Under the pieces are notes generated by a model. That model was not told the origin of the DNA. It saw only the letters and a program-made list of their open reading frames with translations, and did no database searches. Shown here one piece after another: positions 22,669-43,360 of a stretch of 64,000 nucleotides of DNA. The first letter of the stretch is position 1. Each line of letters opens with the position of its first letter. Source of the stretch: Mycobacterium sp. UM_CSW (lineage in GTDB: Bacteria; Actinomycetota; Actinomycetes; Mycobacteriales; Mycobacteriaceae); contig NZ_AUWQ01000017.1 of assembly GCF_000455205.1 (NCBI RefSeq), forward strand, positions 62,001 to 126,000, given 5' to 3'. A program made the translations under genes and the position numbers.

Positions 22669-22714
22669 TGGTGGCCAGGGGCGGGATCGAACCGCCGACC
22701 TTCCGCTTTTCAGG
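22669..22714 (+). repeat. Left attachment site (tRNA-Phe 3' remnant)
   Basis: This 46-bp block is identical to 39092-39137. It contains the CCA end, acceptor 3' strand, T arm and 3' part of the anticodon stem-loop of tRNA-Phe in inverted orientation, and then diverges (TGGATGG here, CGGACGC at the intact tRNA). It is the copy left when the element replaced the 3' half of the gene. Confidence 0.92.
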
Positions 22715-22808
22715 TGGATGGAACGGCCGCTGGCCTGCGGTTTAATGACTCCCATACGTCAAATACGCCGCGCTGAGCGCGTCTGACGCAGGCTGCTCGT
22801 CCGGCGAT

Positions 22809-22826
22809 CGGACACAGACCGGACAC
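22809..22826 (+). repeat. Putative integrase arm-type site, left
   Basis: CGGACACAGACCGGACAC lies 95 bp inside the left attachment repeat. It matches CGGACAGGAACCGGACAC at 39024-39041, 50 bp inside the right repeat, at 15 of 18 bases and in the same orientation. Both carry two CGGACA units. Position and similarity suggest arm sites for the tyrosine integrase. Confidence 0.45.
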
Positions 22827-22909
22827 GGTGACAGCACTCCCGACAAGGGACCCTTCATCGCCCGTCACTCAGTGATGCGCGCTGGGGGCTCCCGGGGAGC
22901 AGGTACCCG

Positions 22910-24412
22910 ATGCCCGGCATCACGAGGTCGAGCGCGCATTCAACGAGCTCGATTGCGGAGCGACTCACCCTTCGGCCGGACACAACCCGAACGGCCAGCC
23001 GGAACACGGACGGAGCGGCGGACGCCGGTAGACCGCGAGTGCCCGAGGCCGGCAAGGCCGCAGGGCGCGAGAGCGGTAGCGGTCGGTCGGACGGCGGGAG
23101 CGGCGTAGACCGTGTTCCGGCTGGGACCAACGGGCTTGTTATATGCGCCAAAAGTGTCCGCGACACCGTCGACGGCATTGTTGATGCGGAACTGTCGGCC
23201 TCGGATGCCTTGGGGCTGCGGTTCCCGAGGCCCAACATGGTGGCCTCGGCAGCGGCGCTGTTCGAACCGGCCGAACCATGGGCGCATGGACGGGACCGGC
23301 TGGATGTCGAACCTGAGTGCGGGCGATTCCGGATCACGATCGGCCCGGGCGTCGTCCGTCTCGGCTGGACCAATCCCGTTCGCGCGGAGAAGGCATCTGA
23401 GCGGACCGTGGGCCAGCACATGCAGGACGTAGCGGGCGAGGTAGACCGCATAAAGGCCGGTCGTGATGTGCCTGACCCGTCGGGCCGTGCGATCACCGAA
23501 TGGTCCCGCAAGTCGCGTGCGGCGATGTGCCGCACCTTCGCCGAGCTGGACTACACGCCGATGGTGGAAAGCGGACGGGTACCCGCGATGGTCACGCTGA
23601 CCTACCCCGGCGACTGGGAATCGGTCGCACCCGATGGAGCCAGCGTAAAGCGACATATGATGCTGTGGCGCAAACGATTTCAGCGCGAATGGGGTGAACC
23701 AGCGCGCTACATCTGGAAGATGGAATTTCAACGCCGCGGCGCACCACACATTCACCTATGGATGGCTCCCCCGTATACCGTCGGTCGATCAGGCCGTAGG
23801 TTCAGCGAATGGTTGTCGCAGGAATGGGCGGAAGTCGTCGCCCATCCCGACCCTGAACAACGCACACGCCACTTGCGCGCCGGTACGGCTATCGACAGCC
23901 TCAACGGATTGCGTGCTTGCGACCCCAAACGCTTGGCGATCTACTTCACGAAGCACTCATCACCGAATAGATTGGGCGACAAGGAATACCAGCACATCGT
24001 TCCGGAGGCCTGGCGGCGGCCGGGCCGCGGACCGGGTCGCTTTTGGGGGGTCCACGGGTTGGAACGAGCAACCGCAGTCGTTGAGATCGCCCAGGACGCA
24101 TACCTGACGGCCCGAAGGATCATCCGTCGGTGGTCTCGCTCACAGGCCATTCATAGCGATTGCACCCACTGCTTCCCCACCGCACTCGTTCCGCGAATGA
24201 CCCGCGTCGCAGTTCAACGAACAAACTCCAAGACTGGCAAAGTACGCCACCGCAACGTCTGTCGGAGGCGACTTCTCTGCCGCCAAGGCGGCTTCGCGGG
24301 TGGCTACGCCCTTGTGAACGACGGACCAGCGTTCGCATCCCAGCTCGCGGCAGCGTTATCGGCGGATCGGGCGAAGGCGGTGCGCGACGAACAACTCGCG
24401 GGCCGTAAGTGA
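22910..24412 (+). CDS. rep: Replication initiator, HUH rolling-circle type
   Basis: The 500-residue protein would nick the element's double-strand origin and start rolling-circle replication. The three Rep motifs are in order: MVTLTYP (227-233), the metal-binding PHIHLW with His280 and His282, and LAIYFTKH with catalytic Tyr345. Residues 1-75 are low-complexity and may be dispensable. ATG 22910 has GGGGAGCAGG upstream. It is the first gene inside the left attachment site, corresponding to repSA in pSAM2-like elements. C-terminal Cys residues (SDCTHCFP) may form a small metal site. Confidence 0.82.
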   Translation: MPGITRSSAHSTSSIAERLTLRPDTTRTASRNTDGAADAGRPRVPEAGKAAGRESGSGRSDGGSGVDRVPAGTNGLVICAKSVRDTVDGIVDAELSASDALGLRFPRPNMVASAAALFEPAEPWAHGRDRLDVEPECGRFRITIGPGVVRLGWTNPVRAEKASERTVGQHMQDVAGEVDRIKAGRDVPDPSGRAITEWSRKSRAAMCRTFAELDYTPMVESGRVPAMVTLTYPGDWESVAPDGASVKRHMMLWRKRFQREWGEPARYIWKMEFQRRGAPHIHLWMAPPYTVGRSGRRFSEWLSQEWAEVVAHPDPEQRTRHLRAGTAIDSLNGLRACDPKRLAIYFTKHSSPNRLGDKEYQHIVPEAWRRPGRGPGRFWGVHGLERATAVVEIAQDAYLTARRIIRRWSRSQAIHSDCTHCFPTALVPRMTRVAVQRTNSKTGKVRHRNVCRRRLLCRQGGFAGGYALVNDGPAFASQLAAALSADRAKAVRDEQLAGRK

Positions 24413-24471
24413 TCTAACGCAATTCACCTCTGACCGTCGCATTGCAGCAACCGGCTACATACGCTTAGCAC

Positions 24472-24783
24472 GTGACCATCGAACTGTCGCCGCGCCTGCC
24501 GGATGGTGAGCGGCCGAGGAATCATCAGGAATTGGCCGCTGAGCAGATGGACCTGGACAACGTGATCAACGAGCTACTCCTGCGGCTGGAGGATCATAAA
24601 TATCGTTGGGAGCTTTATGAATTCGGACTTTCCGACACTGAAGAGCGACGTCAGGTGCACACAGTCATTGAGCAGCTGCGGCTGGCGGTGCATACGGGTG
24701 GGCCAGCCGTACTTCATCCGCTGCGTCACGCGCTGTCTGTAGCTCACTCCGACGACCCCGCGTCGCCTGGATGCTCCGGATAG
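24472..24783 (+). CDS. Hypothetical protein following rep
   Basis: A 103-residue acidic protein starting at GTG 24472. It is helical in its central part (AAEQMDLDNVINELLLRLEDHKYRWELYEFG) with no motif I recognise and no membrane segment. It is in the same direction as rep, 59 bp downstream, and may belong to the replication module. Coding quality looks good (third-position G/C, no low complexity), but function is unknown. Confidence 0.55.
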   Translation: MTIELSPRLPDGERPRNHQELAAEQMDLDNVINELLLRLEDHKYRWELYEFGLSDTEERRQVHTVIEQLRLAVHTGGPAVLHPLRHALSVAHSDDPASPGCSG

Positions 24784-24840
24784 TCCGAGTCGCGGGCCAT
24801 GCTCAGCTGCGCACTACCGTCCACGCGGTGCGGGGGACGG

Positions 24841-25422
24841 CTAGCGCGGTCGTAAACCGACAAAAACGAGGTCGTGAATTGTTCTGGCAATTCGATCTTC
24901 GTCGAGCGCATCGTCAAGCACTAGGTAGGTCAGTGCGCTGGTCGTGACGGCACCGAATAGCGCGATCGCGGCAACTGCTGGGTTGTCGAGGGTCACGAGT
25001 GAGCCGTCGCCGGCGCCAGCGCGAAGTAACGTCTCGACGGGTGCGAAGTATGCGGCGCTGATCATGTCGGCGATGACGGGCATGCGGGCGGCGCGGCCCA
25101 GTTCCCCGATGAGAGCGCGGCAGACGGCGGGTCTCTGTGCCATCACGCGCAGCTGGGCACTGATGACTGCGTGCAGGCGCTGAGCGGCGGAGCCTTCTGC
25201 CTCCACGACTGCGGCGACCTCGTGCGCGACTTGCTGTAGGACGTCTTCGAGGAGGAAGGCGAGTATTTCCTCTTTGCCGGCGAAGTAGTAGTAAAGGGTG
25301 GCCTTGGCGATGCCGGTGGTGGCGGCGACGTCTTCGATCTTGGTGTCGTTGAGCCCGCGGTCTGCGAAAAGTGCCGCCGCCGGCGGCAGGCGGTCGGCAA
25401 TTTTTCGCGGAACCTCGCGCAT
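24841..25422 (-). CDS. TetR-family regulator divergent from P450
   Basis: The 193-residue TetR protein has the HTH segment ALFADRGLNDTKIEDVAATTGIAKATLYYYFAGKEEILAFLL at about residues 18-58. The C-terminal ligand domain is of generic type. It is transcribed away from the cytochrome P450 with an 83-bp shared control region that contains a 17-bp inverted repeat, so it very likely represses the P450 gene and itself. Confidence 0.87.
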   Translation of the reverse strand: MREVPRKIADRLPPAAALFADRGLNDTKIEDVAATTGIAKATLYYYFAGKEEILAFLLEDVLQQVAHEVAAVVEAEGSAAQRLHAVISAQLRVMAQRPAVCRALIGELGRAARMPVIADMISAAYFAPVETLLRAGAGDGSLVTLDNPAVAAIALFGAVTTSALTYLVLDDALDEDRIARTIHDLVFVGLRPR

Positions 25423-25437
25423 TGACGCTCCTCTCGG

Positions 25438-25480
25438 TTGGACTTACAGTCTAAACTACTGGATTAGACAGCCGTATAAT
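25438..25480 (+). promoter_or_regulatory. TetR operator and P450 promoter
   Basis: TTGGACTTACAGTCTAA at 25438-25454 is an inverted repeat matching at six of seven arm positions around TAC. A perfect -10 box TATAAT follows at 25475-25480, 26 bp before the P450 ATG; no convincing -35 is seen. GGTAGGAG supplies the ribosome site. Confidence 0.6.
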
Positions 25481-25505
25481 TAGATTCACAGCGGTAGGAG
25501 CTCAG

Positions 25506-26699
25506 ATGACGACGGTGCAACTTCGCTACGACCCGTTCGATGCGACGATTCAGGACGATCTCTACCCCATCTACCGGCAGCTGCGCGACAAAGCCCCGCT
25601 GTATCGCGCAGCCGATTCCAACACGTGGGTTTTCAGTCGCCACGAAGATGTCGTCAGCGCGCTGCTTGACCATCACACCTACTCATCCGTGGACGGCATA
25701 TTTCCAACTCCACCGGGCTCAGATTTCCACGCATCGTTCTTGCCCATGATGATTTTGATGGATCCCCCGCGACACGATCAGCTGCGCGCGTTGGTAAGCA
25801 AGGCGTTCACCCCGCGGCGCATCGCGGCGTTAAGTAGTGGGATTGAGGACCTGGCGGAGGATTTATCAGATTGCCTTGACCGGGGCGCAGGGTCGGTTGA
25901 CTTTGCCGCCGACTTTGCCGCCGTCCTGCCGGCCATGGTGATCGCTGATTTGCTCGGCATTCCTCGCGAGGACCGCGCACAGTTTCGGCAGTGGTCAACC
26001 ACGATGGTCCAGTCCAATCCGGCGCGCGGTGAGATGGGCGAGGGGCTGGCCGCGGCTGCGGCCGTCTATGCCTACTTCACCGACTTCCTCGCCGAGCGTC
26101 GACGCGAACCGCGCGGCGACTTGATGTCGGCCTTGGTGTCCGCCGAGATCGACGGAAAGCGTCTTACTGACGAGGACCTCCTTGGCTTTTGCCTGTTGCT
26201 GCTCATCGCAGGCCATGAGACCACCTCGAACCTGCTCAGCAACGCCGCAGTAGTGCTTGCGAGCGATCCCGACATTCGCCGACGACTAGTCGCCGATGAC
26301 AACTTGCTTGGTCCCGCAGTTGAGGAGCTCCTCCGGTATGACTCACCGGTGCAAGGACTTTCACGAACTCTGACCCGCGACGTCACGCTGCATGGCGTCA
26401 CGATGTCCGTCGGTGATTCAGTGCTGCTGTTGTTCGGCTCGGCTAACCGTGACGAACGAGTGTTTGCTGATCCCGACGTGTTCGATATCGGGCGCAAACC
26501 CGAACATCAAGTGGCGTTCGGCCGAGGTATCCACTTCTGTCTCGGTGCGTCATTAGCGCGGATGGAGGCCCGGATAGCGTTGCGCGCCCTGCTGGCCCGA
26601 GTGCCCAACTGGGAAGTCGACCTAGAGAACGCGCAGCGCCTGCGGTCGGGCCTCATCCGGGGCTATATGTCTTTGCCTATCTCGTGGTCGGCAAATTAG
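25506..26699 (+). CDS. Cytochrome P450
   Basis: A 397-residue soluble bacterial P450. It shows the I-helix oxygen-activation motif AGHETT (235-240), the K-helix ELLR (Glu274, Arg277), and the haem loop FGRGIHFCLG with the thiolate Cys345. It would hydroxylate a hydrophobic substrate and needs a ferredoxin and reductase from elsewhere, since none is encoded in the element. It is regulated by the divergent TetR protein and is part of the cargo with the MmpL transporter, which could mean a xenobiotic or lipid modification/export role (inference). Confidence 0.93.
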   Translation: MTTVQLRYDPFDATIQDDLYPIYRQLRDKAPLYRAADSNTWVFSRHEDVVSALLDHHTYSSVDGIFPTPPGSDFHASFLPMMILMDPPRHDQLRALVSKAFTPRRIAALSSGIEDLAEDLSDCLDRGAGSVDFAADFAAVLPAMVIADLLGIPREDRAQFRQWSTTMVQSNPARGEMGEGLAAAAAVYAYFTDFLAERRREPRGDLMSALVSAEIDGKRLTDEDLLGFCLLLLIAGHETTSNLLSNAAVVLASDPDIRRRLVADDNLLGPAVEELLRYDSPVQGLSRTLTRDVTLHGVTMSVGDSVLLLFGSANRDERVFADPDVFDIGRKPEHQVAFGRGIHFCLGASLARMEARIALRALLARVPNWEVDLENAQRLRSGLIRGYMSLPISWSAN

Positions 26700-26757
26700 C
26701 CGAACTGCGCGTCAGGCAGAGCGGCTGGGGCGGCGCCATTCCCGCGGAGCGGGATCA

Positions 26758-27393
26758 CTACGATGCGGGCTCGTCGACCTTGCGGCGGTGCGCGGCGAGG
26801 AAGTCATCGACGATGCGCTCACAGTCTTGACGATCGATGGCACGCAGCCCGGTGAGGCGCGCGAAGGCGACCGGCCCCACGAGTTGGCACAGGATCAGCT
26901 CGGGGTCGAATTCATCGAGGTCGGCGCAGGCTTCGGGGCTTTGCAAAAGTAGATCGAACGGCTGGCGATACTGCTCGATGATCCGGGTCCGCAGCGCGTG
27001 CCGATCGTAGGTCTCCTGAGTGCTGTTTGATGTTGGGCCAAGCGCGACCCAAGCCAGTGTGGTGACGTGCAGCGGCGCCTCCTGGAACAGCGTGGCCTGT
27101 CGGCTCAACAGTTCGATGAGTTGGTCGCGCAACGATCCCGTCGCCGGCGGAAGGTGAACCTGCGGCAGCAGCCGTTCAAATGTGGCGGCCAGTAGTTGAG
27201 TGGAGCTGCTGAAGTGGCGATAGAGGGTCGTGCGCGCAACTTTAGAGGCCTTGGTGACCGCGTCTATGGTGACGGCTTCAATCCCGCCGGCGCTGAGGAG
27301 TTTGGTGGCTGCATCTAATAGCCGGGTCCGGGAGCGCACCAGGCGCGGATCGACATCGTCGTCGACCGGCATGTCAAAACCGTCGCGCTCCAT
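26758..27393 (-). CDS. TetR-family regulator with a duplicated operator in the element
   Basis: A 211-residue TetR protein. The HTH reads ATKLLSAGGIEAVTIDAVTKASKVARTTLYRHFSSSTQLLAATF. ATG 27393 is chosen because GGTGA precedes it and upstream codons look non-coding; ATG starts up to 27465 are possible. A long perfect palindrome at 27485-27505 covers its -10 region, so it is probably autoregulated. A 13-bp portion of that operator recurs before the DUF6188 gene at 32682. Confidence 0.83.
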   Translation of the reverse strand: MERDGFDMPVDDDVDPRLVRSRTRLLDAATKLLSAGGIEAVTIDAVTKASKVARTTLYRHFSSSTQLLAATFERLLPQVHLPPATGSLRDQLIELLSRQATLFQEAPLHVTTLAWVALGPTSNSTQETYDRHALRTRIIEQYRQPFDLLLQSPEACADLDEFDPELILCQLVGPVAFARLTGLRAIDRQDCERIVDDFLAAHRRKVDEPAS

Positions 27394-27480
27394 ATGGTCA
27401 CCGTAAACCCTACGCATACCTGGCCCGCACCGAATCGCATCTGCATTGGCGATTGATCCAGCCACTACCCAACTAACGCT

Positions 27481-27514
27481 ACTGTTGGTAGCATAGCGCT
27501 ACCAATAGTACAGT
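27481..27514. promoter_or_regulatory. TetR operator: TTGGTAGC-N5-GCTACCAA
   Basis: Perfect 8-bp arms at 27485-27492 and 27498-27505 surround ATAGC, and an outer ACTGT/ACAGT pair lies at 27481-27485 and 27510-27514. On the minus strand a -10-like TATGCT falls inside the palindrome. The right part, GCTACCAATAGTA (27498-27510), is found again with one change at 32682-32694. Confidence 0.65.
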
Positions 27515-28189
27515 TATTCGTAGGGGTTTGTGCGTAGTAGGGGGATTCGTGATCAGGCAACGGCTCGAACAACCCGTGGTCCAAAAGGCCACCAATGCAC
27601 GGCTGGCATGTCGGTTCATGAGGCCATCCCACGAACCCTCCCAACTTGTGCGGCAGGGACTCGCACACGCCGAGGATGGCGTTCTGCGATGAATGCGCTG
27701 CTTGCGCTAACCAGGACCCAAGTGTGGATGAGTGCGGCTCGCGGTTTCAGGCTCAGCGGCCGCACCATTACCAGTGACATCCACCGAACGCCGCCGGACC
27801 AAGACCGCGTTCGTCCTCGGCATTACCCGCCTCGCTACTGCTCATACCTGGACGACAATTTGATGAACCGGGAAATGTACAACCACGTGCACGACGATCC
27901 CACCAGGCTAACTTCCCGGCTGGCTTTTCGTCTGCGGCGTTCATGAACCTTTCAGAATTTCGGCGACGGTGCGTCGTCACGGTCAATCAACCTGCGCGCC
28001 GAGGGGCACGTCGCGCCAGGCGCGAAATGCTGGTCCGTCGCCTGCGGGGTGCTCTCGGGCCAATCCAGGTGAGTAGTGCGGTAGCGGTCGACGGGTGCAC
28101 GCCTGTCGCGGTTTCGGCGACGAAGCGAAAGGGTACTAGCGGTACTGTTCCGACACCGTTAGTTTCTTTTGGGATAACGGAGGTGGGGG
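27515..28189. other. Long non-coding gap before MmpL
   Basis: This 675-bp stretch of the cargo contains no reading frame with believable composition on either strand; the longest frames are Arg/Thr- or Gly-rich and lack ribosome sites. It may hold the MmpL promoter and decayed sequence from earlier insertions. The end of the gap contains GATAACGGAGGTGGGGG, the strong ribosome site of MmpL. Confidence 0.5.
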
Positions 28190-31100: not shown

Positions 31101-31276
31101 GCTCTGTCGGAATCATGATCCAAGTCGGATTCATCGTCGGCTGCGGCCTACTACTCGACACCTTCGTCGTTCGCACCCTCACGGTGCCCGCGATCGCTAC
31201 GCTCCTGCGCGAGGCCAGCTGGTGGCCGCAACGGAAATCCTCGACTCACAACGGCCGACCACACCGGACCACATGA
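28190..31276 (+). CDS. MmpL/RND-family transporter
   Basis: A 1028-residue inner-membrane RND transporter of the MmpL type, which exports lipids, siderophores or drugs using the proton gradient. The first transmembrane helix is at about 47-66, followed by an extracytoplasmic domain, then TM2-6 with the proton-relay motif GAGTDYSVFLISRYHE (about 282-297). A second, large loop (about 430-840, Gln/Ala-rich coiled region) precedes TM8-12 with GADYNMLLISRLREE. All parts look complete. GGAGG lies just before ATG 28190. It is translationally coupled to the following hydrolase. No MmpS partner is present. Confidence 0.92.
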   Translation: MADNGWVSSGVATLSRPVREQLRKVAAGEGAYSDRLARLAGFSIRHKVLVIGAWVVTAGVLAMLFPQLETVVKQQSVNLVPPDAPSLQTVDRMGTAFGEQGSKTTVFVAFEDPTGLTAPVRQRYKTMVSRLRADSQHVRLVQDLLADPVTAGQAMSQDGKAWYVPVGVAGTLGDPRAAESVRAVRAIVAESFSGTSTIVRVTGPPATFSDLIDSAEQDLIGISIVTAGLIAVILLVIYRSLVTALLPLLVIGVSLAVGRGVLSALGESGMPVSQFTIAFMTAILLGAGTDYSVFLISRYHEQRRQMISADLAVINATATIGRVIMASAATVAFAFLSLVFAKLSVFSALGPACAIAVFVGVAATVTLFPPVLALAAKHGIGEPKADRTRRYWNWIAVAVVRRPAPLLAASLALVLGLAAVALTMHISYDDRQGQPATTTSNEGYRLLDRHFRKDIVITQFMVVESPTDMRTSKGLADLDEMASRVSQLPGVTKVSGVTRPTGARLDQAQLSWQNGQIGNKMAGAVAKGDAHKDDLAKLTSGADQLAGGLAQLDTTLRTALTPLTAVLTQAQSSGSQFQHFRPLLQQLSATTPTIDQAIRTGPGLRQEAQQAQNAIATIDPLVGALNTSPWCATTPECAQIRDQVQILVTLRDGGFFSQLANLGDMYQPGSDNAAGTVADLQSTVTSLNKAFGALGDPADMAGNIRRLQNGISQLASGAQALATGVHTLADSNIEMLSGMSQVATQLQNSARSSAGSDNASGFYLPANTFENRQFADVAKHFMSADGKTARFAIESSYNPYSSQAMDLAQKITEVAGAARPNTSLANATISMAGFPAVNSDIQRLLSADFHLLAIATLVIVGVILVLLLRALLAPLYLLGTVVLNYGAALGIGTLVFQYGLGKEIAWPVPLVAFIILVAVGADYNMLLISRLREESAHNIRVGVLRTVANTGSVITSAGLIFAASMFGLMVGSVGIMIQVGFIVGCGLLLDTFVVRTLTVPAIATLLREASWWPQRKSSTHNGRPHRTT

Positions 31277-32169
31277 CAATTGGCCGAGAGCGCATCCGCA
31301 CCAGCGACGGGATCACTCTCGTGGCCGATTGCTACCGGCACGCCGCGACTCACCCCGTCGTGTTGCTGCTCCATGGCGGCGGCCAGAACCGTCACGCGTG
31401 GGCCACCACCGCCCGTCGACTCTATTCCCACGGCTACACCGTCGTCGCCTACGACACACGAGGTCACGGCGACAGCGACTGGGACCCGAGCGGACAATAT
31501 GACATCGAACGGTTTGTGTCCGATCTGATCTCGGTACGAGGACACGTCAGCGCCGACAGTCCCCCCGCCGTCGTCGGCGCGTCGCTGGGTGGGCTGATCA
31601 TCCTCGCTACCCATCTGCTGGCCCCACCCGACCTCTGGGCAGCCGTTGTCCTGGTCGACATCACCCCGCGAATGGAATTTCATGGGGCCCGTCGCATCCT
31701 GTCATTCATGGCCGGACACCCCGACGGATTCGGCACGCTCAATGATGCCGCCGATGTCATCGCCGAATACAACCCACGCCGCGCGCGACCCGAAAATCTC
31801 GACGGCCTGCACAAGGTTCTGCGCCAACGTAGCGATGGCCGATGGATCTGGCGCTGGGACCCGGCCTTCATCAGCTCCAACTTCGATGTCCTCCAAGGCA
31901 ATCTCATGACGGGCAGCGAGGAGTTCGACGCCATCAGCGGATTCCTCGCCGAAGGAGCACGTCGAATCACGGCCCCAACGCTGTTGGTACGCGGGGCACT
32001 TTCAGACGTAGTCTCCCAGGAAACCGTCAGCGAATTCCGCCAGCTCGTCAGGCACGCCGAAACGACGGACGTCACCGGCACCGGTCACATGGTTGCCGGC
32101 GACAACAACGACGCGTTCACCGCCGCGGTTACCGACTTCCTCGACCGCGCCATGAGGACCCTGACATAA
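31273..32169 (+). CDS. Alpha/beta hydrolase coupled to MmpL
   Basis: The 298-residue protein has VVLLLHGGGQNRHAW (oxyanion region), VVAYDTRGHGDS, the nucleophile elbow VVGASLGG and GTGHMVAGD with the catalytic His. The family includes epoxide hydrolases and esterases. ATG 31273 overlaps the MmpL stop in ATGA, so the two proteins are made together; a GTG at 31222 is less likely. Its role is probably tailoring or degrading the MmpL or P450 substrate (inference). Confidence 0.85.
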   Translation: MTIGRERIRTSDGITLVADCYRHAATHPVVLLLHGGGQNRHAWATTARRLYSHGYTVVAYDTRGHGDSDWDPSGQYDIERFVSDLISVRGHVSADSPPAVVGASLGGLIILATHLLAPPDLWAAVVLVDITPRMEFHGARRILSFMAGHPDGFGTLNDAADVIAEYNPRRARPENLDGLHKVLRQRSDGRWIWRWDPAFISSNFDVLQGNLMTGSEEFDAISGFLAEGARRITAPTLLVRGALSDVVSQETVSEFRQLVRHAETTDVTGTGHMVAGDNNDAFTAAVTDFLDRAMRTLT

Positions 32170-32197
32170 GCATCCAGCGAGTCTTCAGCCACCCGGG

Positions 32198-32644: not shown

Positions 32645-32681
32645 AACCGCCCCCTTCGACGCGTCGGTGAGTCCCATCTAT

Positions 32682-32696: not shown

Positions 32697-32908
32697 GCAA
32701 CGATACTATTAGTATTCCTATGCGCTATCGCGGGCGTTCCATGCATCAAGAATGCGCTGCAAACCTCGATCAATGCGCTCGCGCGCCTCCCCTGCCGTGC
32801 GGCTCTGGTGTGGCTGCGGTCGGTTGACCTGCCGTATGCATGCAGTCGTCGGAATGCGAACACTACGGACCGATCTGAGTTGTCATCCCCAAGTGCGACC
32901 ATCCCAAT

Positions 32909-34477
32909 ATGGCGATCACCATCCCATCCGGCCGGCCCAACTGGCGCTTCATGCGCTACGTTCGGCCGCCGACGAGAGACTCGAAGTTGGAGCCTCTGTA
33001 CCCATTGAGGCCGGCAACGCGCCCGGTGCGGCTGGGCATTGATGTCGGGACCATCGCGGAGCCGCCGGAGGAGGGCTACATCACCGGGTTCCTGACGCGC
33101 GACGAGATCGAGGTGCACCTATTGATCCCGGCGGCAACGGAAGCTCCGAGCGGGTGGACCGAGTTGCTCGATGAACCGCCTTGCCACACCGTCAATTTCA
33201 CGAACGTAGCTGACGCAGGCAAGTTCTGCGACGCGGCCGAGTTCTCCGTCAGCACCGCTCGTGGCGAGAGCTACCGTGCCTGGTCCAAGGCTCGGTTCTT
33301 CGCCGCGTACCAGCAGCTCGATGAGCACGATGCGCCGGACGGCCTCCCCCCGTTGACGCTCGATCAGCGACATCGTGCAGCTGCCTATGCTGCCGCCGCC
33401 GGGGCTGTTGGCATCGATGCCATCGTCACCACCGCCCCCACTGCGGGACGAACAGATGTCGCCGACAACGATGTGGTCGTCAGCGTGACACCCGACGCGG
33501 CTGTACCACTCATCGGTCACTACTTGCGGGTGACTAGCAATCCGGTTGTGACGGTCGAGCGCGGCATGTTGGTGGGTGGCGGAAGCTGGGAGACGACGGA
33601 GTCGACTGCGACCATCGTCAATCTTTACGACTGGGGCACGGTCAGCGGATTGCCATACTTCGATGCCGCTTCAATGTTTGCGGCTGCCGCTAAAGGTGGA
33701 CCTGAGGCCGCAGAGGCATTCACGTCGGTTCGCATCCGCCTGAGACGTGCAGCGCGCGCGTTCGACGATCTGCTGGCCGCGCTGTCGAACCCGCTGGACG
33801 GGAAGCGGAACGAAGATGTTGCCGAGGCTACCGCTGAAGCTTTTGACCGTGAATTACTCTATCTTGCAGCAGTTTTCGATATTTTCGGGCGTGCTTACCA
33901 AGCGATGGTCGACCCGTCAGTTGATCGGAAAAAGGCTCGGGGATCACTCGACTCGCGGACCTTCATCGACAAGGAAGTGCGAACGCAGTACGACCAGTCA
34001 CTTTTGGGTGACGTGACGCGCCTGCGGGTGTATGCGTGGCTCTGCAAGCAGTTGAGGAATCACATCCACGATGGCGTTCTTGCCGTCGACACCCACCCTG
34101 GCCGCAGCTACGGCAACACGATGAACGTGGCGCTGAATCTCAGTGTGATTCCCGAGTTAGCCCTCGGTGCCGACAATGAGATGACTCAGCACCACTACGA
34201 CGCGCTGGGAGTGTGGCAGACCGAACCTGTTTCGCCCTTTACCGGTTCGTCAATGGTGGCCGACCTTGCGACAACCGGTTTCACCCTCATCCGAGCGGCG
34301 CTCGAGTACATCGAAGCGTTCACGAAACTTATCGTCCGGAACAAACCGGCGAATGCGCCGTCGTCTAGTGCGTTCCTGGGATGCGTGCAGGCTCGTCCGG
34401 GCGAGGTCGAGCCAGCGCCCCCAAAGCGAGCAGTGTTCTATCAAGCACTGTTCGGATTACATCCGGACAGCGTGTAG
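32909..34477 (+). CDS. Unrecognised 522-residue cargo protein
   Basis: I do not recognise this protein. It has no signal peptide or membrane segment. The N-terminal 230 residues look like a mixed alpha/beta domain (LGIDVGTIAEPPEEGYITGFLTRDEIEVHLLIPA). The C-terminal half (about 250-470) is helical and repetitive in charge, including a VRIRLRRAARAFDDLLAALSN segment. It sits alone between the DUF6188 gene and the Nudix/GntR control region, where mobile elements often carry defence or exclusion functions, but nothing in the sequence proves that. The frame is long and uninterrupted with good codon use. Confidence 0.7.
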   Translation: MAITIPSGRPNWRFMRYVRPPTRDSKLEPLYPLRPATRPVRLGIDVGTIAEPPEEGYITGFLTRDEIEVHLLIPAATEAPSGWTELLDEPPCHTVNFTNVADAGKFCDAAEFSVSTARGESYRAWSKARFFAAYQQLDEHDAPDGLPPLTLDQRHRAAAYAAAAGAVGIDAIVTTAPTAGRTDVADNDVVVSVTPDAAVPLIGHYLRVTSNPVVTVERGMLVGGGSWETTESTATIVNLYDWGTVSGLPYFDAASMFAAAAKGGPEAAEAFTSVRIRLRRAARAFDDLLAALSNPLDGKRNEDVAEATAEAFDRELLYLAAVFDIFGRAYQAMVDPSVDRKKARGSLDSRTFIDKEVRTQYDQSLLGDVTRLRVYAWLCKQLRNHIHDGVLAVDTHPGRSYGNTMNVALNLSVIPELALGADNEMTQHHYDALGVWQTEPVSPFTGSSMVADLATTGFTLIRAALEYIEAFTKLIVRNKPANAPSSSAFLGCVQARPGEVEPAPPKRAVFYQALFGLHPDSV

Positions 34478-34484
34478 TGGACCC

Positions 34485-34916
34485 CTAGCAGCCCGACACG
34501 AGGTTGACGCCGTCATGGACCCGCGAATGAGTTTCTTCGTCGAACGCGTCCAGTACACGCACCGCGAATGCAGGATTCATCGCTGACTGAACTTCCTCCC
34601 TTGTCATCCAACGAACCTCGCGGGCTTCCGCAGTGGGGTGAGTGTCCCCATCGGCCGGATGGCAGCGGTAGACCAGAGCGACAATCCCATGGGTCAGGTT
34701 CTTGTAAACGCCGGTGAGACGTTCTACCTTCACCGTCAATCCGGTTTCCTCAAGGACTTCGCGCCGAACACCGTCCTCAAAAGATTCGCCTAGTTCGAGT
34801 ACACCACCAGGGGCTTCCCAGTGGCCGTTGTCGTCCCGCCTGATCACGAGAACGCGATCATCGTCACGCACTACGATGCCGGCGACACTGACCGAGTGCT
34901 TAGGCGAGGTTGCCAT
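34485..34916 (-). CDS. Nudix hydrolase of the AICE backbone
   Basis: The 143-residue protein contains the full Nudix box: Gly38, Glu44, then REVLEETGL at 52-60 (GX5EX7REUXEEXGU). It would hydrolyse a nucleoside diphosphate derivative. A Nudix gene is part of the regulatory region of pSAM2-like elements. It is divergent from the GntR regulator, sharing a 76-bp control region with the palindrome at 34972-34988, so both are probably under GntR control. Confidence 0.88.
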   Translation of the reverse strand: MATSPKHSVSVAGIVVRDDDRVLVIRRDDNGHWEAPGGVLELGESFEDGVRREVLEETGLTVKVERLTGVYKNLTHGIVALVYRCHPADGDTHPTAEAREVRWMTREEVQSAMNPAFAVRVLDAFDEETHSRVHDGVNLVSGC

Positions 34917-34971
34917 TTCTGGGGTCCTCCTTGTTCGATGCCGGCAGAAGAGACACGGGTTGACTGGCTTC

Positions 34972-34988
34972 CTAGACTAGTCGTCTAG
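34972..34988. promoter_or_regulatory. GntR operator 1: CTAGAC-N5-GTCTAG
   Basis: Perfect 6-bp arms surround TAGTC, ending five bases before the GntR GTG start and within the divergent region with the Nudix gene. The derived string TCTAGACGACTA (reverse strand) recurs at 35833-35844 before the Pra-like gene, so the two sites are related. Confidence 0.62.
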
Positions 34989-34992
34989 ACAT

Positions 34993-35790
34993 GTGATGGA
35001 AGGCCAGCGGGTGCTGCAACTTGGACAAATCGACAGAGCCGATGACAAGCCGCCATATCGGCAGATCGCGGGCATGTTGCGAGAAGCGATCCGTTCCAAC
35101 CGGCTAGCTCCCGGGGAACGACTGCCGTCTGAGACGGAACTTATCGAGCATTTCGGTGTGGCACGCATGACGGTAAGACAAGCTGTGCAGGAGCTTCGTT
35201 CCGAGGGACTGGTCGTCTCGCAGCATGGCCGCGGGGTGTTTATTCGCCCGACGCCCCCCATCCGCCGGCTCGCGTCGGATCGATTCGCGCGACAGCATCG
35301 CGCGGCAGGCAAGGCGGCGTTTACCGTCGAGGCCGAGAAATCGGGTTACTCGCCGCAAGTCGACAATATTGCGGTGAGCCGCGAGAAGCCGAATTCGTTT
35401 GTAGCGGAACGACTTCGATTATCACCGGACGATGACATCGTCGTGCGATCGCGCCGCTACCTGGCGAATGGCCGACCGGTTGAAACGGCGGTCTCCTTCA
35501 TCCCGGCTGCTTTCGCCGAAGGCACGAGGATCGAGCAGGTGGACACTGGGCCCGGGGGCATCTACGCCCGACTGGAAGAGAATGGCCACGTACTCGGTCA
35601 CTTCACCGAGGAGGTCGCAGCCCGAATGCCCACTCCCGAAGAACGGCGGCAACTGGAACTCGAACCAGGCGTTCCCGTATTGACAGTGCTGCGAACCGCA
35701 TATGACGCGAATGACGTGGCGGTTGAGGTCTGCGACACGGTGAAAGTTGCTTCCGCCTACCTGCTCGAATACGAGTTCCCGGCCCGCTGA
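34993..35790 (+). CDS. GntR-family regulator (HutC type, KorSA-like)
   Basis: The 265-residue regulator has an N-terminal GntR winged helix (LREAIRSNRLAPGERLPSETELIEHFGVARMTVRQAVQELRSEGLVVSQHGRGVFI, about 28-83) and a C-terminal UTRA ligand domain. In pSAM2 the equivalent KorSA represses pra and thereby replication, excision and transfer. Here palindromes lie both at its own start and upstream of the Pra-like gene, consistent with that circuit. The start is GTG 34993 or ATG 34996. Confidence 0.87.
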   Translation: MMEGQRVLQLGQIDRADDKPPYRQIAGMLREAIRSNRLAPGERLPSETELIEHFGVARMTVRQAVQELRSEGLVVSQHGRGVFIRPTPPIRRLASDRFARQHRAAGKAAFTVEAEKSGYSPQVDNIAVSREKPNSFVAERLRLSPDDDIVVRSRRYLANGRPVETAVSFIPAAFAEGTRIEQVDTGPGGIYARLEENGHVLGHFTEEVAARMPTPEERRQLELEPGVPVLTVLRTAYDANDVAVEVCDTVKVASAYLLEYEFPAR

Positions 35791-35831
35791 GCCCAAAGTC
35801 TTCGATCAACTGGGCGTCGACCGTTGCACTC

Positions 35832-35866
35832 CTCTAGACGACTATGTAACCTCAACTTGTCTAGAG
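35832..35866. promoter_or_regulatory. GntR operator 2 upstream of the Pra-like gene
   Basis: CTCTAGAC at 35832-35839 and GTCTAGAG at 35859-35866 form perfect 8-bp arms with a 19-bp spacer. The same CTAGAC/GTCTAG half-sites make up the operator at 34972-34988. The site ends 23 bp before ATG 35890, where it could shut off the transfer/excision operon. Confidence 0.6.
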
Positions 35867-35889
35867 CAGTTCTCATGAAAGGTCGACAA

Positions 35890-36312
35890 ATGTCTGTGCC
35901 GAAATGGCTCAAGGTGTCACACCAGCAGGTTTTCCCACGCAAAGCGTTTGTGGTGTCCGACGTGACGGCGGTGATCGATTACGAGCGGTCGACGAAGGAC
36001 AACAAGGTCCAGGCGACTGATCGAGAATCAGGCGCTCCGTTGTGGCAGGTCGAAGTCCTCGACGGCGACCCGACAGCTAGTAAGCGAGCGCGCACTCTCA
36101 CCGTCAAGTTCGCAACGCCCAAGCAGCCTGTGTGCCCACCGAACACTGCCGGAATGCCCTTCACACCAGTGATTTTCGAGGAACTATACATATTGCCGTA
36201 CGTAGACCGTTCGAGCGAATCCGGCCGCATCGCGTGGTCGTTTCGGGCCTCGGGTATGACTGCGGACACCGGCAAGGCGGGGTCCTCAGCGGGAGACCGG
36301 GTGTCAGCATGA
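35890..36312 (+). CDS. Pra-like activator of AICE replication and excision
   Basis: The 140-residue protein has no membrane segment. Its central part, KVQATDRESGAPLWQVEVLDGDP followed by PFTPVIFEELYILPYVD and GRIAWSFRASGM, resembles the small proteins annotated in Streptomyces elements as plasmid replication, integration and excision activators (Pra). ATG 35890 is preferred since GAAAGG lies seven bases upstream. It overlaps the tra gene by 4 bp (ATGA). Position under the GntR operator and at the head of the tra-xis-int run supports the call. Confidence 0.6.
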   Translation: MSVPKWLKVSHQQVFPRKAFVVSDVTAVIDYERSTKDNKVQATDRESGAPLWQVEVLDGDPTASKRARTLTVKFATPKQPVCPPNTAGMPFTPVIFEELYILPYVDRSSESGRIAWSFRASGMTADTGKAGSSAGDRVSA

Positions 36313-37655
36313 GTCCGTACGACCCCGTAGTACCTAGCGATCCGTATTCGATTCCAGATCCCGACGCCGGCATCGACTTCTTTGACCTCACGCACCTGCT
36401 GGCGGTCGGCGCCATGTGGCTCATTGCGGTGATCGGCGTGGTCGCCGTTTCGCTCGTCGTTTGGAGAGTGCGTTCCCCCGCCACATTTGGGCGTTATGTT
36501 GCAACACCAGCATGTCGGGCCCGATGGCTGATCTGGGCATCGATCTCCTGGCCACGGGTTGCCAAGGCCTGCGGGTTGTCGACTCCCGAGCACGTCACAC
36601 GCACGGACGCACAGGGCAAGAGCAGGACGAGGACAGTTTGGACTCATCCTCGCCTTCTCGGGGTGAGCATGTTCGGCGACTGCCTACGGATGACAGTCCG
36701 AACACGGACCGGCCAGACGGTGGACGACCTCGAAAACGCGGTCCCCGCAATTCGTGACGCTGTCGGGGCGCATTCCGCCCGCTCGACACTGATCGGCCCC
36801 GGCACGGTTCGCGTGGAATTCGTTATGAAACAATGCCTTTCAGAGGCAGAGACCGCTGCATTCCCAACCAGCGTCGAGCCGACGGGCGTCGAGGTCGGCC
36901 GGCGTGAGAATGGGTCGGCATGGACTCTGCGCGTCGCCGGCCTGCACACCCTCACTGTTGGGTGCTCGGGTGCGGGCAAGGGCTCCGTTTTTTGGGGCAT
37001 TGCAGGCGGATTAGGCCCAGCCATCAAGGCGGGAACCGTGCGGCTGTTCGCCGTGGATCTCAAGTACGGGATCGAAGTGTCAGTCGGGTCTGCACTATTC
37101 AGCGGCATTGCGACGACCGAGGCCAACGCCGCGAGACTGCTGACCAACTTGGAGGAGCTACTAGACAGCCGCGGTCGCAGGATGGCCGGCCGAGCGCGTT
37201 CGCACACACCGAGCACCGCCGAACCGCTCGTCGTGCTGCTCATCGATGAATTCGCGGGCTTGACCGCATACATGACGGACGCGGCACTGAGGAAGCAAGT
37301 TGCGGGCTCACTCTCACGCATCCTGACAAAGGGTAGGGCTGTAGGCATCGTGGTCGCCGCATTCATGCAGGACCCTCGCAAGGAGATTCTGCCCATGCGC
37401 GGGTTGTTCACCCAAACCGTCGCACTGCGGCTGCGCTCACGCGACGAAGTCGCCATGGTCTTGGGTGACGGCCTCGCCGACGCCGCCCCCGCGCATCGGA
37501 TCAACCCAAATGAGCCTGGTACCGGATACGTCATCGCCGAAGACGGGTCAACGATGCGAGTACGCGCCGACTTCTGGCCCGATTCGCTAATCCGTTCTGT
37601 CGCACAAGAATACGGGCCTACAAGCTCAAGTCGCGCTGGTTCAGCAGAGAACTGA
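36309..37655 (+). CDS. tra: FtsK/SpoIIIE-type conjugative DNA translocase (Tra)
   Basis: A 448-residue membrane ATPase that in AICEs moves double-stranded DNA to the recipient. A transmembrane helix lies at about 30-52. The motor domain has Walker A GCSGAGKGS (218-226) and Walker B VVLLIDEF (308-315). It ends with a short region (SSSRAGSAEN) rather than a long winged helix, so the clt-recognition part may be reduced or divergent. It starts inside the Pra-like stop codon and is followed after 10 bp by xis. Confidence 0.88.
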   Translation: MSPYDPVVPSDPYSIPDPDAGIDFFDLTHLLAVGAMWLIAVIGVVAVSLVVWRVRSPATFGRYVATPACRARWLIWASISWPRVAKACGLSTPEHVTRTDAQGKSRTRTVWTHPRLLGVSMFGDCLRMTVRTRTGQTVDDLENAVPAIRDAVGAHSARSTLIGPGTVRVEFVMKQCLSEAETAAFPTSVEPTGVEVGRRENGSAWTLRVAGLHTLTVGCSGAGKGSVFWGIAGGLGPAIKAGTVRLFAVDLKYGIEVSVGSALFSGIATTEANAARLLTNLEELLDSRGRRMAGRARSHTPSTAEPLVVLLIDEFAGLTAYMTDAALRKQVAGSLSRILTKGRAVGIVVAAFMQDPRKEILPMRGLFTQTVALRLRSRDEVAMVLGDGLADAAPAHRINPNEPGTGYVIAEDGSTMRVRADFWPDSLIRSVAQEYGPTSSSRAGSAEN

Positions 37656-37665
37656 GGACATCGGC

Positions 37666-37899
37666 ATGACAACCCTCGGCATCAAAACCAGCGCCACCGC
37701 GACAGCGACCTTTCCAGAGCTTCTAACAGCGGAGCAGGTGGCCGAGCTGCTTGGCGTGTCCGCTGCGACGGTGAGTCGATGGGGCGCATTGCGCGAACAC
37801 GGCGCAGACGTGGGACCGCCCTGCTACACGCTATCTGATCGCGTAAGACGTTGGGACGCAGCTGAAGTCCGCGCATGGCTTCGTAAGGTGCGTCGCTAA
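37666..37899 (+). CDS. xis: Excisionase (Xis), MerR-like helix-turn-helix
   Basis: The 77-residue protein contains LLTAEQVAELLGVSAATVSRWGALREHG, the winged-helix motif of small recombination directionality factors, and a basic C-terminus WLRKVRR. Its TAA stop directly precedes the integrase GTG, as in pSAM2-like elements where Xis and Int are co-expressed. It should bend attachment DNA and favour excision. Confidence 0.85.
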   Translation: MTTLGIKTSATATATFPELLTAEQVAELLGVSAATVSRWGALREHGADVGPPCYTLSDRVRRWDAAEVRAWLRKVRR

Positions 37900-39057
37900 G
37901 TGGCCGGATCGGTCCCGCGCGGTATCCGAAAGCGGATCAATTCGGCCGGTCTGCCGCGCTATCAAGTGCGCTACCTGGTGCGTGATTCAGACTCCCCGTC
38001 GGGATGGGCTGAGACGTCGTCGACGTTCGCCACCTTGCGAGAAGCGCGGGCATTCAAGGCCGACCGGGATGGCGAAGCGGCGATCGGCGCCAGACGCTTC
38101 GACCCCCGACTTGGCCGGGCCAAACTCGCCGCTGTCTGGACGCAATACAGCGCGTTGAAACGCCCCGCAGTGTCGCCCAAGACCTGGAGCGGCTACACCC
38201 AGCATTGGGAACTACGCATCAGTCCGCGTTTCGGCCACGTCCCGGTTGATGAAATCAGCCGAAAGGATATACAGCAATTCATCGATTCCATGACCGTCGG
38301 TCCCTGGGCCAAACTCGCCACGCTGCGGCTGCTGCGGTCGATTCTCGACATGGCGCGCGAGGACGGTCGAATCCACAGCAACCCGGCTGACGGGGTGTCA
38401 TCCGGGCGGATACCCACCCGAGAACGCCACCGCTATCTGACCGCCACCGAAGTCGCCGCCCTGGCAGCCGCATGCGGCGACCACGGCGACGTGGTGATCA
38501 TCCTCGCCTTCACCGGCCTGCGCTGGTCCGAACTCGTCGGCCTGCGGGTCGGCGACATCGACCTAACTGCGCGTCGGCTCTATGTCCGCCAGGCCGCGCC
38601 AGAAGTGGAAGGCCGGATCATCGTCGGGCCGCCAAAAACTCGCGCCGCCGCCCGAACCGTCCCACTCCCCCAAATCGTCATCGACGCGCTCAAACCAAGG
38701 ATCGATAATCGCGCGCCCACAGAACATGCAATCACCTCGCCAAATGGCGGGTTCCTCAGATCAAACAACTGGCGCCGGCATACCGACTGGAACGAAGCCC
38801 TAAAGAAAACCGGACTGGTGCCGCTGACGATTCACGACCTGCGCCACACCTACGCCAGCCTGGCCCGGGCCTCCGGCGCCGACCTCCGCTACGTCCAGAA
38901 GACGATGGGGCACTCGACGCCGACCGTCACCGCGAACATCTACAGCGACCTCTATTCAGACGAACTCGACCACGTAGCCACGAATCTCGACCGGCTTCAG
39001 GACGTCGCCAAAAACCGGGCGAACGGACAGGAACCGGACACACCGAACCATCCATAG
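37900..39057 (+). CDS. int: Tyrosine-recombinase integrase
   Basis: The 385-residue integrase has an N-terminal arm-binding region, a SAM-like core-binding domain (about 75-165) and the catalytic domain with Arg208 (TGLRWSEL), His312 and Arg315 (HDLRHTYASL), His338 (GHSTP) and nucleophile Tyr348 (NIYSDLY). All catalytic residues are present. It ends 34 bp from the right attachment repeat at tRNA-Phe, the standard place for a tRNA-targeting integrase. GTG 37900 is the start, coupled to xis. Confidence 0.93.
   Translation: MAGSVPRGIRKRINSAGLPRYQVRYLVRDSDSPSGWAETSSTFATLREARAFKADRDGEAAIGARRFDPRLGRAKLAAVWTQYSALKRPAVSPKTWSGYTQHWELRISPRFGHVPVDEISRKDIQQFIDSMTVGPWAKLATLRLLRSILDMAREDGRIHSNPADGVSSGRIPTRERHRYLTATEVAALAAACGDHGDVVIILAFTGLRWSELVGLRVGDIDLTARRLYVRQAAPEVEGRIIVGPPKTRAAARTVPLPQIVIDALKPRIDNRAPTEHAITSPNGGFLRSNNWRRHTDWNEALKKTGLVPLTIHDLRHTYASLARASGADLRYVQKTMGHSTPTVTANIYSDLYSDELDHVATNLDRLQDVAKNRANGQEPDTPNHP
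39024..39041 (+). repeat. Putative integrase arm-type site, right
   Basis: CGGACAGGAACCGGACAC lies within the last codons of int, 50 bp from the right attachment repeat, and matches 22809-22826 at 15 of 18 bases. Confidence 0.45.
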
Positions 39058-39091
39058 AGTGCCATCACCGCGTCCGTGCAGCTCAAGACTG

Positions 39092-39137
39092 GTGGCCAGG
39101 GGCGGGATCGAACCGCCGACCTTCCGCTTTTCAGGCG
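39092..39137 (+). repeat. Right attachment site within tRNA-Phe
   Basis: Identical over 46 bp to 22669-22714. It begins exactly at the CCA end of tRNA-Phe and stops just past the anticodon loop, so strand exchange probably occurs in the anticodon stem-loop, as for many tyrosine integrases. Confidence 0.92.
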
Positions 39138-43356: not shown

Positions 43357-43360
43357 AGCG

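What the first reader, a model, noticed from the sequence alone, without database searches (positions are those of the whole stretch)
22669..39137. Intact AICE-type integrative conjugative element in a Mycobacterium tRNA-Phe gene
Seen: 46-bp direct repeats, tyrosine integrase, excisionase, HUH Rep, FtsK-like Tra, GntR regulator, Nudix and a Pra-like gene, all uninterrupted. Known: this gene set defines pSAM2-like AICEs of Streptomyces, which transfer double-stranded DNA with one FtsK protein. Inference: the element can excise, replicate and perhaps transfer. Such elements with complete backbones seem little studied in slow-growing mycobacteria, and this one carries P450 and MmpL cargo.
Basis: partly seen in the sequence, partly recalled or inferred. 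Interest (0 to 1): 0.85.

Follow-up and report, generated by a model that had tools for sequence, protein, structure and literature searches.

The report
Mycobacterial AICE with relocated replication gene
A 16.5-kb piece of mobile DNA sits in a tRNA-Phe gene of a mycobacterium; practically identical copies occur in three other species, and its replication gene lies at the end opposite to that in known related elements, which suggests that copying may be switched on only when the element leaves the chromosome.

Summary
An exact 46-bp repeat (the 3' end of tRNA-Phe) brackets 22669-39135, with open integrase, excisionase, FtsK-type Tra, Pra-like, GntR, Nudix and HUH Rep genes, low in dN/dS. It is an AICE-class element and has moved recently: copies in M. 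interjectum and M. vulneris are identical and that of Mycobacterium sp. E1214 nearly so, whereas a chromosomal block in those hosts is 79-87% identical. Two of five relatives fetched show the empty site. In M. vulneris the element is an alternative occupant, with an 84% cousin, of one attB.

The label "pSAM2-like" fails on two points. The Rep scores 13.7 bits against RepSA's cut-off of 34; its plasmid kin are small actinobacterial plasmids. And rep is not between tra and xis but at the far end, starting 239-247 bp from the att repeat in 22 of 22 aligned left ends. Ten of ten tested non-mycobacterial relatives by Tra carry RepSA after tra. So this is a mycobacterial family whose Rep differs in type and place. 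Excision would join pra-tra-xis-int to rep across attP; I propose, untested, that this licenses replication. AICEs in Mycobacterium have been known since 2011.

The parts
22669..22714 (+). attL: 46-bp repeat of the tRNA-Phe 3' end
   Evidence: exact match to 39090-39135; att sequence at nearly the same distance from rep in 22 of 22 aligned left ends
22809..22826 (+). putative arm-type integrase site (CGGACA-N2-RACCGGACAC), left arm
   Evidence: only two matches in the window with at most 1 mismatch, expected 0.01; 16-bp core in 19 of 22 aligned left ends, 21 of 22 if CGGACG is allowed. Role inferred
22910..24412 (+). rep: HUH replication initiator, 500 aa, not RepSA
   Evidence: PF23343 2e-11; 13.7 bits to RepSA PF20199, cut-off 34; kin on plasmids of 4-16 kb
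24472..24783 (+). small ORF, 103 aa, no family
24841..25422 (-). TetR-family regulator (cargo)
   Evidence: PF00440, PF17932
25506..26699 (+). cytochrome P450 (cargo)
   Evidence: PF00067 1.2e-31
26758..27465 (-). TetR-family regulator (cargo)
   Evidence: PF00440, PF16859
28190..31276 (+). MmpL-family transporter (cargo; start uncertain)
   Evidence: PF03176 1.6e-155
31222..32169 (+). alpha/beta hydrolase (cargo; start uncertain)
   Evidence: PF00561
32198..32677 (-). DUF6188 protein (cargo)
   Evidence: PF19686 1.2e-42
32909..34477 (+). 522-aa protein of no known family (cargo)
   Evidence: no hit in Pfam, NCBIfam, PHROGs, PADLOC
34485..34916 (-). Nudix hydrolase (Pif-like domain)
   Evidence: PF00293 2.4e-21
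34978..34989 (+). putative GntR/KorSA operator TAGTCGTCTAGA upstream of gntR
   Evidence: one of two exact matches in the window; related core upstream of gntR in 20 of 20 members examined
34993..35790 (+). GntR-UTRA regulator (KorSA-like)
   Evidence: PF00392, PF07702; dN/dS 0.08-0.09
35833..35844 (-). same 12-bp operator, inverted, upstream of pra
   Evidence: related core upstream of pra in 19 of 20 members
35890..36312 (+). Pra-like activator
   Evidence: homologues, mostly 37-46%, upstream of tra in other AICEs
36309..37655 (+). tra: FtsK-type translocase with N-terminal helices
37666..37899 (+). xis: HTH excisionase-like
   Evidence: PF12728; PHROG excisionase families
37900..39057 (+). 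int: tyrosine integrase
   Evidence: PF00589 6e-20, phrog_1 9.9e-70
39024..39041 (+). putative arm-type integrase site, right arm (inside the int 3' end)
   Evidence: 16-bp core in 28 of 28 aligned right ends. Role inferred
39090..39166 (-). tRNA-Phe(GAA) target gene; attR = 39090-39135

Best explanation
A functional AICE-class element of a Mycobacteriaceae/Rhodococcus family that is recently mobile between species. Shown from sequence: site-specific integration into tRNA-Phe, an uninterrupted backbone under purifying selection, practically identical copies in divergent hosts, a Rep of non-RepSA kind at the end opposite int, with near-fixed spacing to the att site. Inferred: the GntR repressor holds its own gene and pra off through shared 12-bp operators; release gives the pra-tra-xis-int operon; Int/Xis excise the element; in the circle rep lies directly downstream of int across attP, so operon transcription can reach rep and rolling-circle replication is tied to excision; the FtsK-type Tra moves double-stranded DNA, and the incoming circle reintegrates at tRNA-Phe. 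The 0.7 below covers element, mobility and architecture together; the excision-licensing step alone I put at about 0.35.
For: Exact att repeats. Element copies: M. vulneris 0 differences in 16467 bp; M. interjectum 0 in two contig pieces that together span it (10049 and 6426 bp); E1214 one mismatch and one gap in 12824 bp, identical in the rest. A chromosomal block is 87, 81 and 79% identical in those hosts over the 1.9-2.7 kb that align. Empty site in 2 of 5 relatives fetched for it. M. vulneris assembly: two alternative occupants of one attB, sharing exactly 77 bp at both ends, contig read depths 17.9 and 45.9 in the record names; the other occupant is itself near-identical in genome G046. 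Rep start 239-247 bp from the repeat in 22 of 22 aligned left ends. RepSA after tra in 10 of 10 tested relatives. dN/dS 0.07-0.30 in 24 comparisons. Operators, arm repeats, no T-run, and no terminator-like site on the + strand, in either half of the att junction.
Against: No excised circle or transfer was observed; no circular form turned up in the plasmid collection. rep has 195 bp between att and its start and may have its own promoter, which would remove the licensing step; the promoter scan does not cover mycobacterial promoters. Some relatives are broken: int in G026, L092 and L115, rep in L086 and L055, and several Rep matches carry a stop. Three of the five relatives fetched for the empty site did not show it. 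M. vulneris could be a mixed culture.
Confidence: 0.7

Rival explanations
1. An ordinary AICE whose rep merely happens to sit at the other end: rep has its own promoter, and its position has no regulatory meaning.
For: 195 bp of partly conserved non-coding DNA lie between att and rep, with a conserved Shine-Dalgarno-like GGGGAG; permuted AICE gene orders are known, e.g. Fcci3390 of Frankia (PMC3218068 section 10).
Against: The spacing of 239-247 bp is kept in 22 of 22 aligned left ends and in two elements with a tRNA-Val-like att end, while cargo varies; but arm-type Int sites in the same stretch could by themselves explain the spacing.
Confidence: 0.45
2. A resident, immobile island: a once-mobile element now inherited vertically.
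For: Some family members are decayed.
Against: Zero differences in 16467 bp against hosts whose chromosome block differs by 13-21%; empty site in two relatives; dN/dS well below 1.
Confidence: 0.04
3. The identical copies are cross-contamination between sequencing projects.
For: In M. vulneris the element is a separate contig with low read depth and only 30 bp of left flank.
Against: That 30 bp is M. vulneris' own left flank. In E1214 one contig joins the element to 8 kb of flank that is 80% identical to the window. In M. interjectum the two contigs continue past the ends (1.9 and 5.5 kb seen) into sequence that does not match the window.
Confidence: 0.06
4. A satellite or remnant prophage rather than a conjugative element.
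For: Tyrosine integrase and Xis have phage homologues.
Against: Of the 10 ORFs of the element scanned with PHROGs none is called capsid or lysis, and only Xis has one weak terminase-small-subunit resemblance; Rep has no match in 50,697 phage records; FtsK-fold Tra present.
Confidence: 0.03

Closest known systems
pSAM2 / pMR2-type AICEs (Streptomyces, Frankia and others; PMC3218068)
   Same: tRNA 3'-end integration by tyrosine integrase, Xis, single FtsK-type Tra, Pra-like gene before tra, GntR (KorSA-like) regulator, Nudix gene
   Different: RepSA is absent; an HUH Rep of another kind lies at the opposite end; [quoted passage not shown]
RepSA-type AICEs of Cellulomonas, Terrabacter, Nocardioides and others (this work, among L111-L147)
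   Same: nearest Tra outside the family (mostly 43-53% identity), Pra-like gene upstream of tra in most
   Different: RepSA after tra in 10 of 10 tested, with int seen beyond it in 9; other tRNA targets. The nearest row of all, L125 (53%), is cut short and could not be tested
Other AICEs of Mycobacterium (serine-integrase groups of PMC3218068; L061-L069 here)
   Same: same host genus, FtsK Tra, Nudix in most, sometimes the same MmpL/DUF6188/TetR cargo
   Different: Tra only 33-39% identical; RepSA just after tra
Island GI2 of Mycobacterium sp. UM_CSW (PMC4818103)
   Same: 14.7 kb, 61.7% G+C, integrase and tRNAs ahead of it, TetR, P450, hydrolase, KorSA, TraSA; reported 100% identical in two other strains
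   Different: described only as a genomic island; rep, att sites and gene order not given in the section read; whether it belongs to this family was not tested
Mkan24688 of M. kansasii (PMC3218068)
   Same: the only Mycobacterium AICE of that survey without a serine integrase
   Different: its table of sites was not available to me; membership unknown
Tn916 (PMC11658703, passages read)
   Same: works alike, by hypothesis: genes are separated from their promoter while integrated and joined to it by circularisation
   Different: unrelated element with T4SS; the coupling there is shown by experiment
Small plasmids pTSC1, pREC02, Nonomuraea plasmid I
   Same: related Rep (37-44% identity) on plasmids that also encode an FtsK-domain protein (or, in the Nonomuraea plasmid, a Tra match) upstream of it in the same direction
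   Different: no integrase named in their (incomplete) gene tables; Tra of the first two not among the Tra matches

Membership tests
AICE class (integrase + replication initiator + FtsK-type Tra) | integrase with att repeats, mostly in a tRNA 3' end | tested here: met
AICE class (integrase + replication initiator + FtsK-type Tra) | FtsK/SpoIIIE-fold Tra with Walker motifs | tested here: met
AICE class (integrase + replication initiator + FtsK-type Tra) | own replication initiator gene | tested here: met
   HUH Rep, PF23343 2e-11; catalytic region conserved in 20 aligned Reps. The AlphaFold model of Rep was too poor to use (pLDDT 37.7)
AICE class (integrase + replication initiator + FtsK-type Tra) | excision, replication as a circle and double-stranded DNA transfer | not testable with these tools
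   indirect only: identical copies in several species
pSAM2/pMR2 subfamily of AICEs | RepSA replication initiator (PF20199) | tested here: not met
   13.7 bits against a cut-off of 34 (12.0-18.6 for the family Reps listed); the same profile scores over 400 bits in other AICEs of the genus
pSAM2/pMR2 subfamily of AICEs | gene order tra-rep-xis-int | tested here: not met
   rep is at the other end
pSAM2/pMR2 subfamily of AICEs | KorSA repressor with shared operators at korSA and pra | tested here: inconclusive
   GntR-UTRA gene and a shared 12-mer at both promoters; binding not tested, motif differs from the SCO3932 consensus
pSAM2/pMR2 subfamily of AICEs | Pra activator | tested here: inconclusive
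   conserved gene in the right place; not compared with pSAM2 Pra itself
Tn916-like excision-coupled expression | genes silent when integrated, transcribed through the joined ends in the circle | not testable with these tools
   geometry fits, no terminator-like site on the + strand in either half
T4SS-type ICE | relaxase and VirB4/VirD4 | tested here: not met
   none among the 19 ORFs of the element scanned with Pfam

The most novel reading that the evidence does not exclude
A mycobacterial AICE lineage replaced RepSA with a small-plasmid-type HUH Rep placed on the far side of attP, so that excision itself joins the replication gene to the derepressed pra-tra-xis-int operon. Replication would then be licensed by circularisation: an analogue, in elements that transfer double-stranded DNA, of Tn916's coupling of expression to excision, and a way to keep Rep from nicking the integrated copy.
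Probability: 0.35. Interest if true: 0.75.

Novelty: new variant of a known kind. Interest (0 to 1): 0.62.

Why it matters
FtsK-type double-stranded DNA transfer is known from Streptomyces; [quoted passage not shown] A 16.5-kb element that is identical, or within two differences, in four species is a sharp natural case that it, or something like it, operates in mycobacteria, and it names type strains in which to look. The relocated rep makes a clear, testable prediction about how integrated elements keep replication off. Parts of the cargo (MmpL, P450, TetR) are shared with other AICEs and plasmids of the genus, so such elements are a route by which mycobacterial envelope and metabolism genes may spread.

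Tried and rejected
No circular form of the element in the plasmid collection (only cargo matches, at most 18% of the query). The Rep model (pLDDT 37.7) was not used for any search. The viral-contig scan gave 7 loci at 33-69% identity (L168-L174) that I did not examine. The 522-aa cargo protein has no family in four libraries and I did not pursue it.

Rejected: a reading of the M. vulneris contig as one member of a tandem array, because a 46-bp repeat is shorter than the 77-bp overlap and a tandem member would not begin with the chromosomal left flank and end in tRNA-Phe (inference). Rejected as empty-site examples, of five relatives fetched (L050-L054): G051, where about 8 kb of other DNA lies between left flank and tRNA-Phe; G116, where only the first part of the flank gene was found, 3.2 kb away; G134, where it was not found.

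Dropped rows: for the rep-att spacing I aligned 22 left ends in which the Phe repeat was found with at most 9 mismatches. Four further rep loci without such a hit were inspected: two carry a tRNA-Val-like 3' end at 241-243 bp (one checked by exact 22-mers, one by eye), one a repeat with a short deletion at 241 bp (a tandem junction), one a half-lost repeat. L163 (rep N-terminus missing), loci cut at the edge, second fetches of one genome and the identical copies of the window element were left out. The aligned start codon is ATG in 21 of 22 and ACG in one. For RepSA position I tested 10 of the 31 non-family loci; in one of the ten no int was identified. The genome-contig scan returned exactly 80 candidate stretches, perhaps a cap, so its 71 loci are a floor. 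For the tree Tra rows with stops or under about 330 residues were left out: 100 kept, 79 after removing identical rows; the tool warned of long branches.

Literature searched for this family: (and 86 for Tn916). Papers seen: PMC3218068 passages and sections 6, 7, 10; PMC8190616, PMC7478629, PMC12803027, PMC8584621 and PMC11658703 passages; PMC4818103 passages and section 21. No supplementary file was read.

Full report
What is there. The window lies in contig C17 of an unnamed 6.39-Mb genome. Its genus is Mycobacterium as the tool groups it: two 'same genus' contigs, G091:C60 and G015:C556, have the lengths and matches of the M. innocens and M. simiae records. It has an exact 46-bp direct repeat at 22669-22714 and 39090-39135. 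The right copy is the 3' end of an intact tRNA-Phe in a Phe-Asp-Glu cluster with a divergent tRNA-Lys beside it. Between the repeats lies DNA of lower G+C with, in order: rep, cargo (TetR, P450, TetR, MmpL, hydrolase, DUF6188, a 522-aa orphan), Nudix(-), gntR, pra, tra, xis, int. pra and tra overlap by ATGA, tra and xis are 10 bp apart, xis and int abut, so pra-tra-xis-int reads as one operon (coordinates).

Integrated element with an empty site. A search of 148 genomes of the genus with the tRNA cluster matched in all 148, strongly (E below 1e-90) in 135 by my count of the rows; the integrase search on the same number gave 27 genomes with a hit at E 1e-60 or better. Comparing coordinates by hand, 19 of 148, the window's genome included, have an integrase of this family directly beside tRNA-Phe (three of the 19 partial or split); two more have a 45-47% integrase there. 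Five relatives were fetched to look for the empty site. In two (L051, L052) the left-flank gene that ends 4 bp before attL in the window lies about 10 bp from tRNA-Phe, with nothing between; the other three do not show it.

Recent movement. M. vulneris DSM 45247 holds a 16,522-bp contig whose 16,467 element bases are all identical to the window; M. interjectum DSM 44064 holds two contigs that together cover the element without a difference; Mycobacterium sp. E1214 has one mismatch and one gap in 12,824 bp and no difference in the rest, apart from an inverted stretch at a contig end. The chromosomal block 41016-43733 is 87, 81 and 79% identical in M. interjectum, M. vulneris and E1214 where it aligns. 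In E1214 one contig carries the element and 8 kb of flank at 80%. Such a contrast is hard to explain except by very recent transfer. The M. vulneris contig begins with 30 bp of that strain's own left flank and shares exactly 77 bp with contig NODE_4 at each end, where an 84% cousin occupies the same site. I read this as an assembly bubble: two alternative occupants of one attB in one DNA sample, with contig read depths 17.9 and 45.9 in the record names. Exchange in culture and a mixed culture both fit. The cousin is in turn near-identical to the element of genome G046: 8 mismatches and 1 gap over 13,259 bp (tRNA cluster included), none over 1,724 bp at the left end; how far the chromosomes of those two differ I did not measure (each is 80-81% identical to the window's block).

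The family and its odd Rep. A scan of named genomes with the Tra alignment gave 71 loci. Forty of them, in 38 genomes, belong to the family by Tra (57-100% identity): Mycobacterium, Mycolicibacterium, Mycolicibacter, one Rhodococcus, and three metagenome bins. In 37 of 40 a tRNA-Phe follows int; two contigs end too early and one locus has tRNA-Val. 36 of the 38 genomes have a match to the window's Rep at E 1e-20 or better, some of them in pieces or with a stop. In the Tra tree of 79 rows the family forms a clade of 41 with support 100/99; the other 27 rows of the larger clade are from Cellulomonas, Terrabacter, Nocardioides and relatives. Ten of the 31 non-family loci were tested and all ten have RepSA after tra, with int seen beyond it in nine. 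Mycobacterial AICEs of other lineages also have RepSA just after tra. The window Rep scores 13.7 bits against RepSA, under the cut-off of 34. Its kin on plasmids are Reps of 11 records of 4 to 16 kb from Streptomyces, Rhodococcus, Nonomuraea and others at 36-47% identity; two of the three looked at name an FtsK-domain protein upstream of rep, and the third has a Tra match there. It has no match in the phage collection and was found in 8 of 298 genomes of the order, in 3 of 76 genera. That the Rep was exchanged in the ancestor of the family is my inference.

Geometry. In 22 of 22 aligned left ends the rep start follows the start of the att repeat by 239-247 bp, behind a conserved GGGGAG. Two further elements keep the distance with a tRNA-Val-like 3' end as att. 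An 18-bp motif occurs in the window only at 22809 and 39024, one on each side of the att site that excision would form (expected 0.01); its 16-bp core is in 19 of 22 left ends and 28 of 28 right ends. These look like arm-type integrase sites. In the circle the order is therefore tra-xis-int-attP-rep. A natural tandem array (L055) shows this junction with rep 241 bp from the repeat.

Regulation. The 12-mer TAGTCGTCTAGA occurs exactly twice in the window: upstream of gntR and, inverted, upstream of pra. With two mismatches allowed there are 3 matches against 1.26 expected, so rarity alone proves little; place and conservation weigh more: a related core (TCTAGA, GTCTAG or CTAGAC) is upstream of gntR in 20 of 20 and upstream of pra in 19 of 20 members examined, whereas TCTAGA occurs 0.12 times per kb overall. 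This matches KorSA's targets in pSAM2 (korSA and pra; PMC8584621 passages). No such site precedes rep.

Mechanism proposed. Repressor release, then pra-tra-xis-int expression, then excision. Only the circle places rep downstream of that operon, with no T-run and no + strand terminator-like site in either half of the junction. While integrated, the operon reads towards the tRNA cluster and rep is preceded by host DNA. Tn916 shows that such coupling by circularisation exists (PMC11658703, passages). In pSAM2 itself rep, xis and int form one operon under Pra (PMC8584621 passage). A private rep promoter in the 195-bp interval is the main rival and at least as likely.

Known and new. AICEs in Mycobacterium were surveyed in 2011; all but one had serine integrases (PMC3218068). 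An island with the same kind of genes, identical in three strains, was noted in 2016 (PMC4818103). My searches did not turn up this family, its Rep or its gene order, in a library that lacks most subscription journals.

Noticed in passing
L065, L067, L068; plasmid hits: Cargo kin in AICEs of a different Tra lineage: MmpL (74-76% protein identity) and TetR (64-68%) in all three, DUF6188 (71-74%) in two, a distant P450 (34%) in two. MmpL or P450+TetR also lie at 71-77% DNA identity on Mycobacterium and Mycolicibacterium plasmids: a travelling cargo module.
   Followed up: partly
G075:C1:2870606-2873725 and G115:C1:2592036-2595062: Two reduced 3.3-Mb genomes of the genus carry a decayed FtsK-type tra with many stops about 1.4 kb from the tRNA-Phe cluster: apparent fossils of an element at the same site.
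   Followed up: no
L058, L059, L060, L070, L166: Related integrases beside tRNA-Val(CAC), or rep behind a tRNA-Val-like att end, including a second, broken integrase in the window's own genome (G000:C37, one TAA): relatives of this integrase use another tRNA.
   Followed up: partly
L050 (G051:C175) 3867-11903: The nearest chromosome has a different 8-kb stretch at the site (P450, FAD oxidase, TPP enzyme, hydrolases, PucR regulator) with one repeat copy and sequence like the integrase 3' end.
   Followed up: partly
L032 (G046) and L080/L155 (M. vulneris NODE_4): The 84% cousin element is itself near-identical in two genomes, a second case of apparent recent transfer.
   Followed up: partly
L036/L088, L040, L055: Tandem or accretion arrays at tRNA-Phe with internal repeat copies and fragments of int and rep.
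   Followed up: partly
window 34485-34916: The Nudix protein matches PADLOC's candidate defence model PDC-S07 at 7.5e-16; possibly only the shared Nudix domain.
   Followed up: no
window 32909-34477: 522-aa cargo protein without a match in Pfam, NCBIfam, PHROGs or PADLOC; among the loci compared it was found only in the identical copies.
   Followed up: no
L033 (G026), L092, L115: Family members whose integrase falls into two or three frames: decayed copies exist beside intact ones.
   Followed up: no
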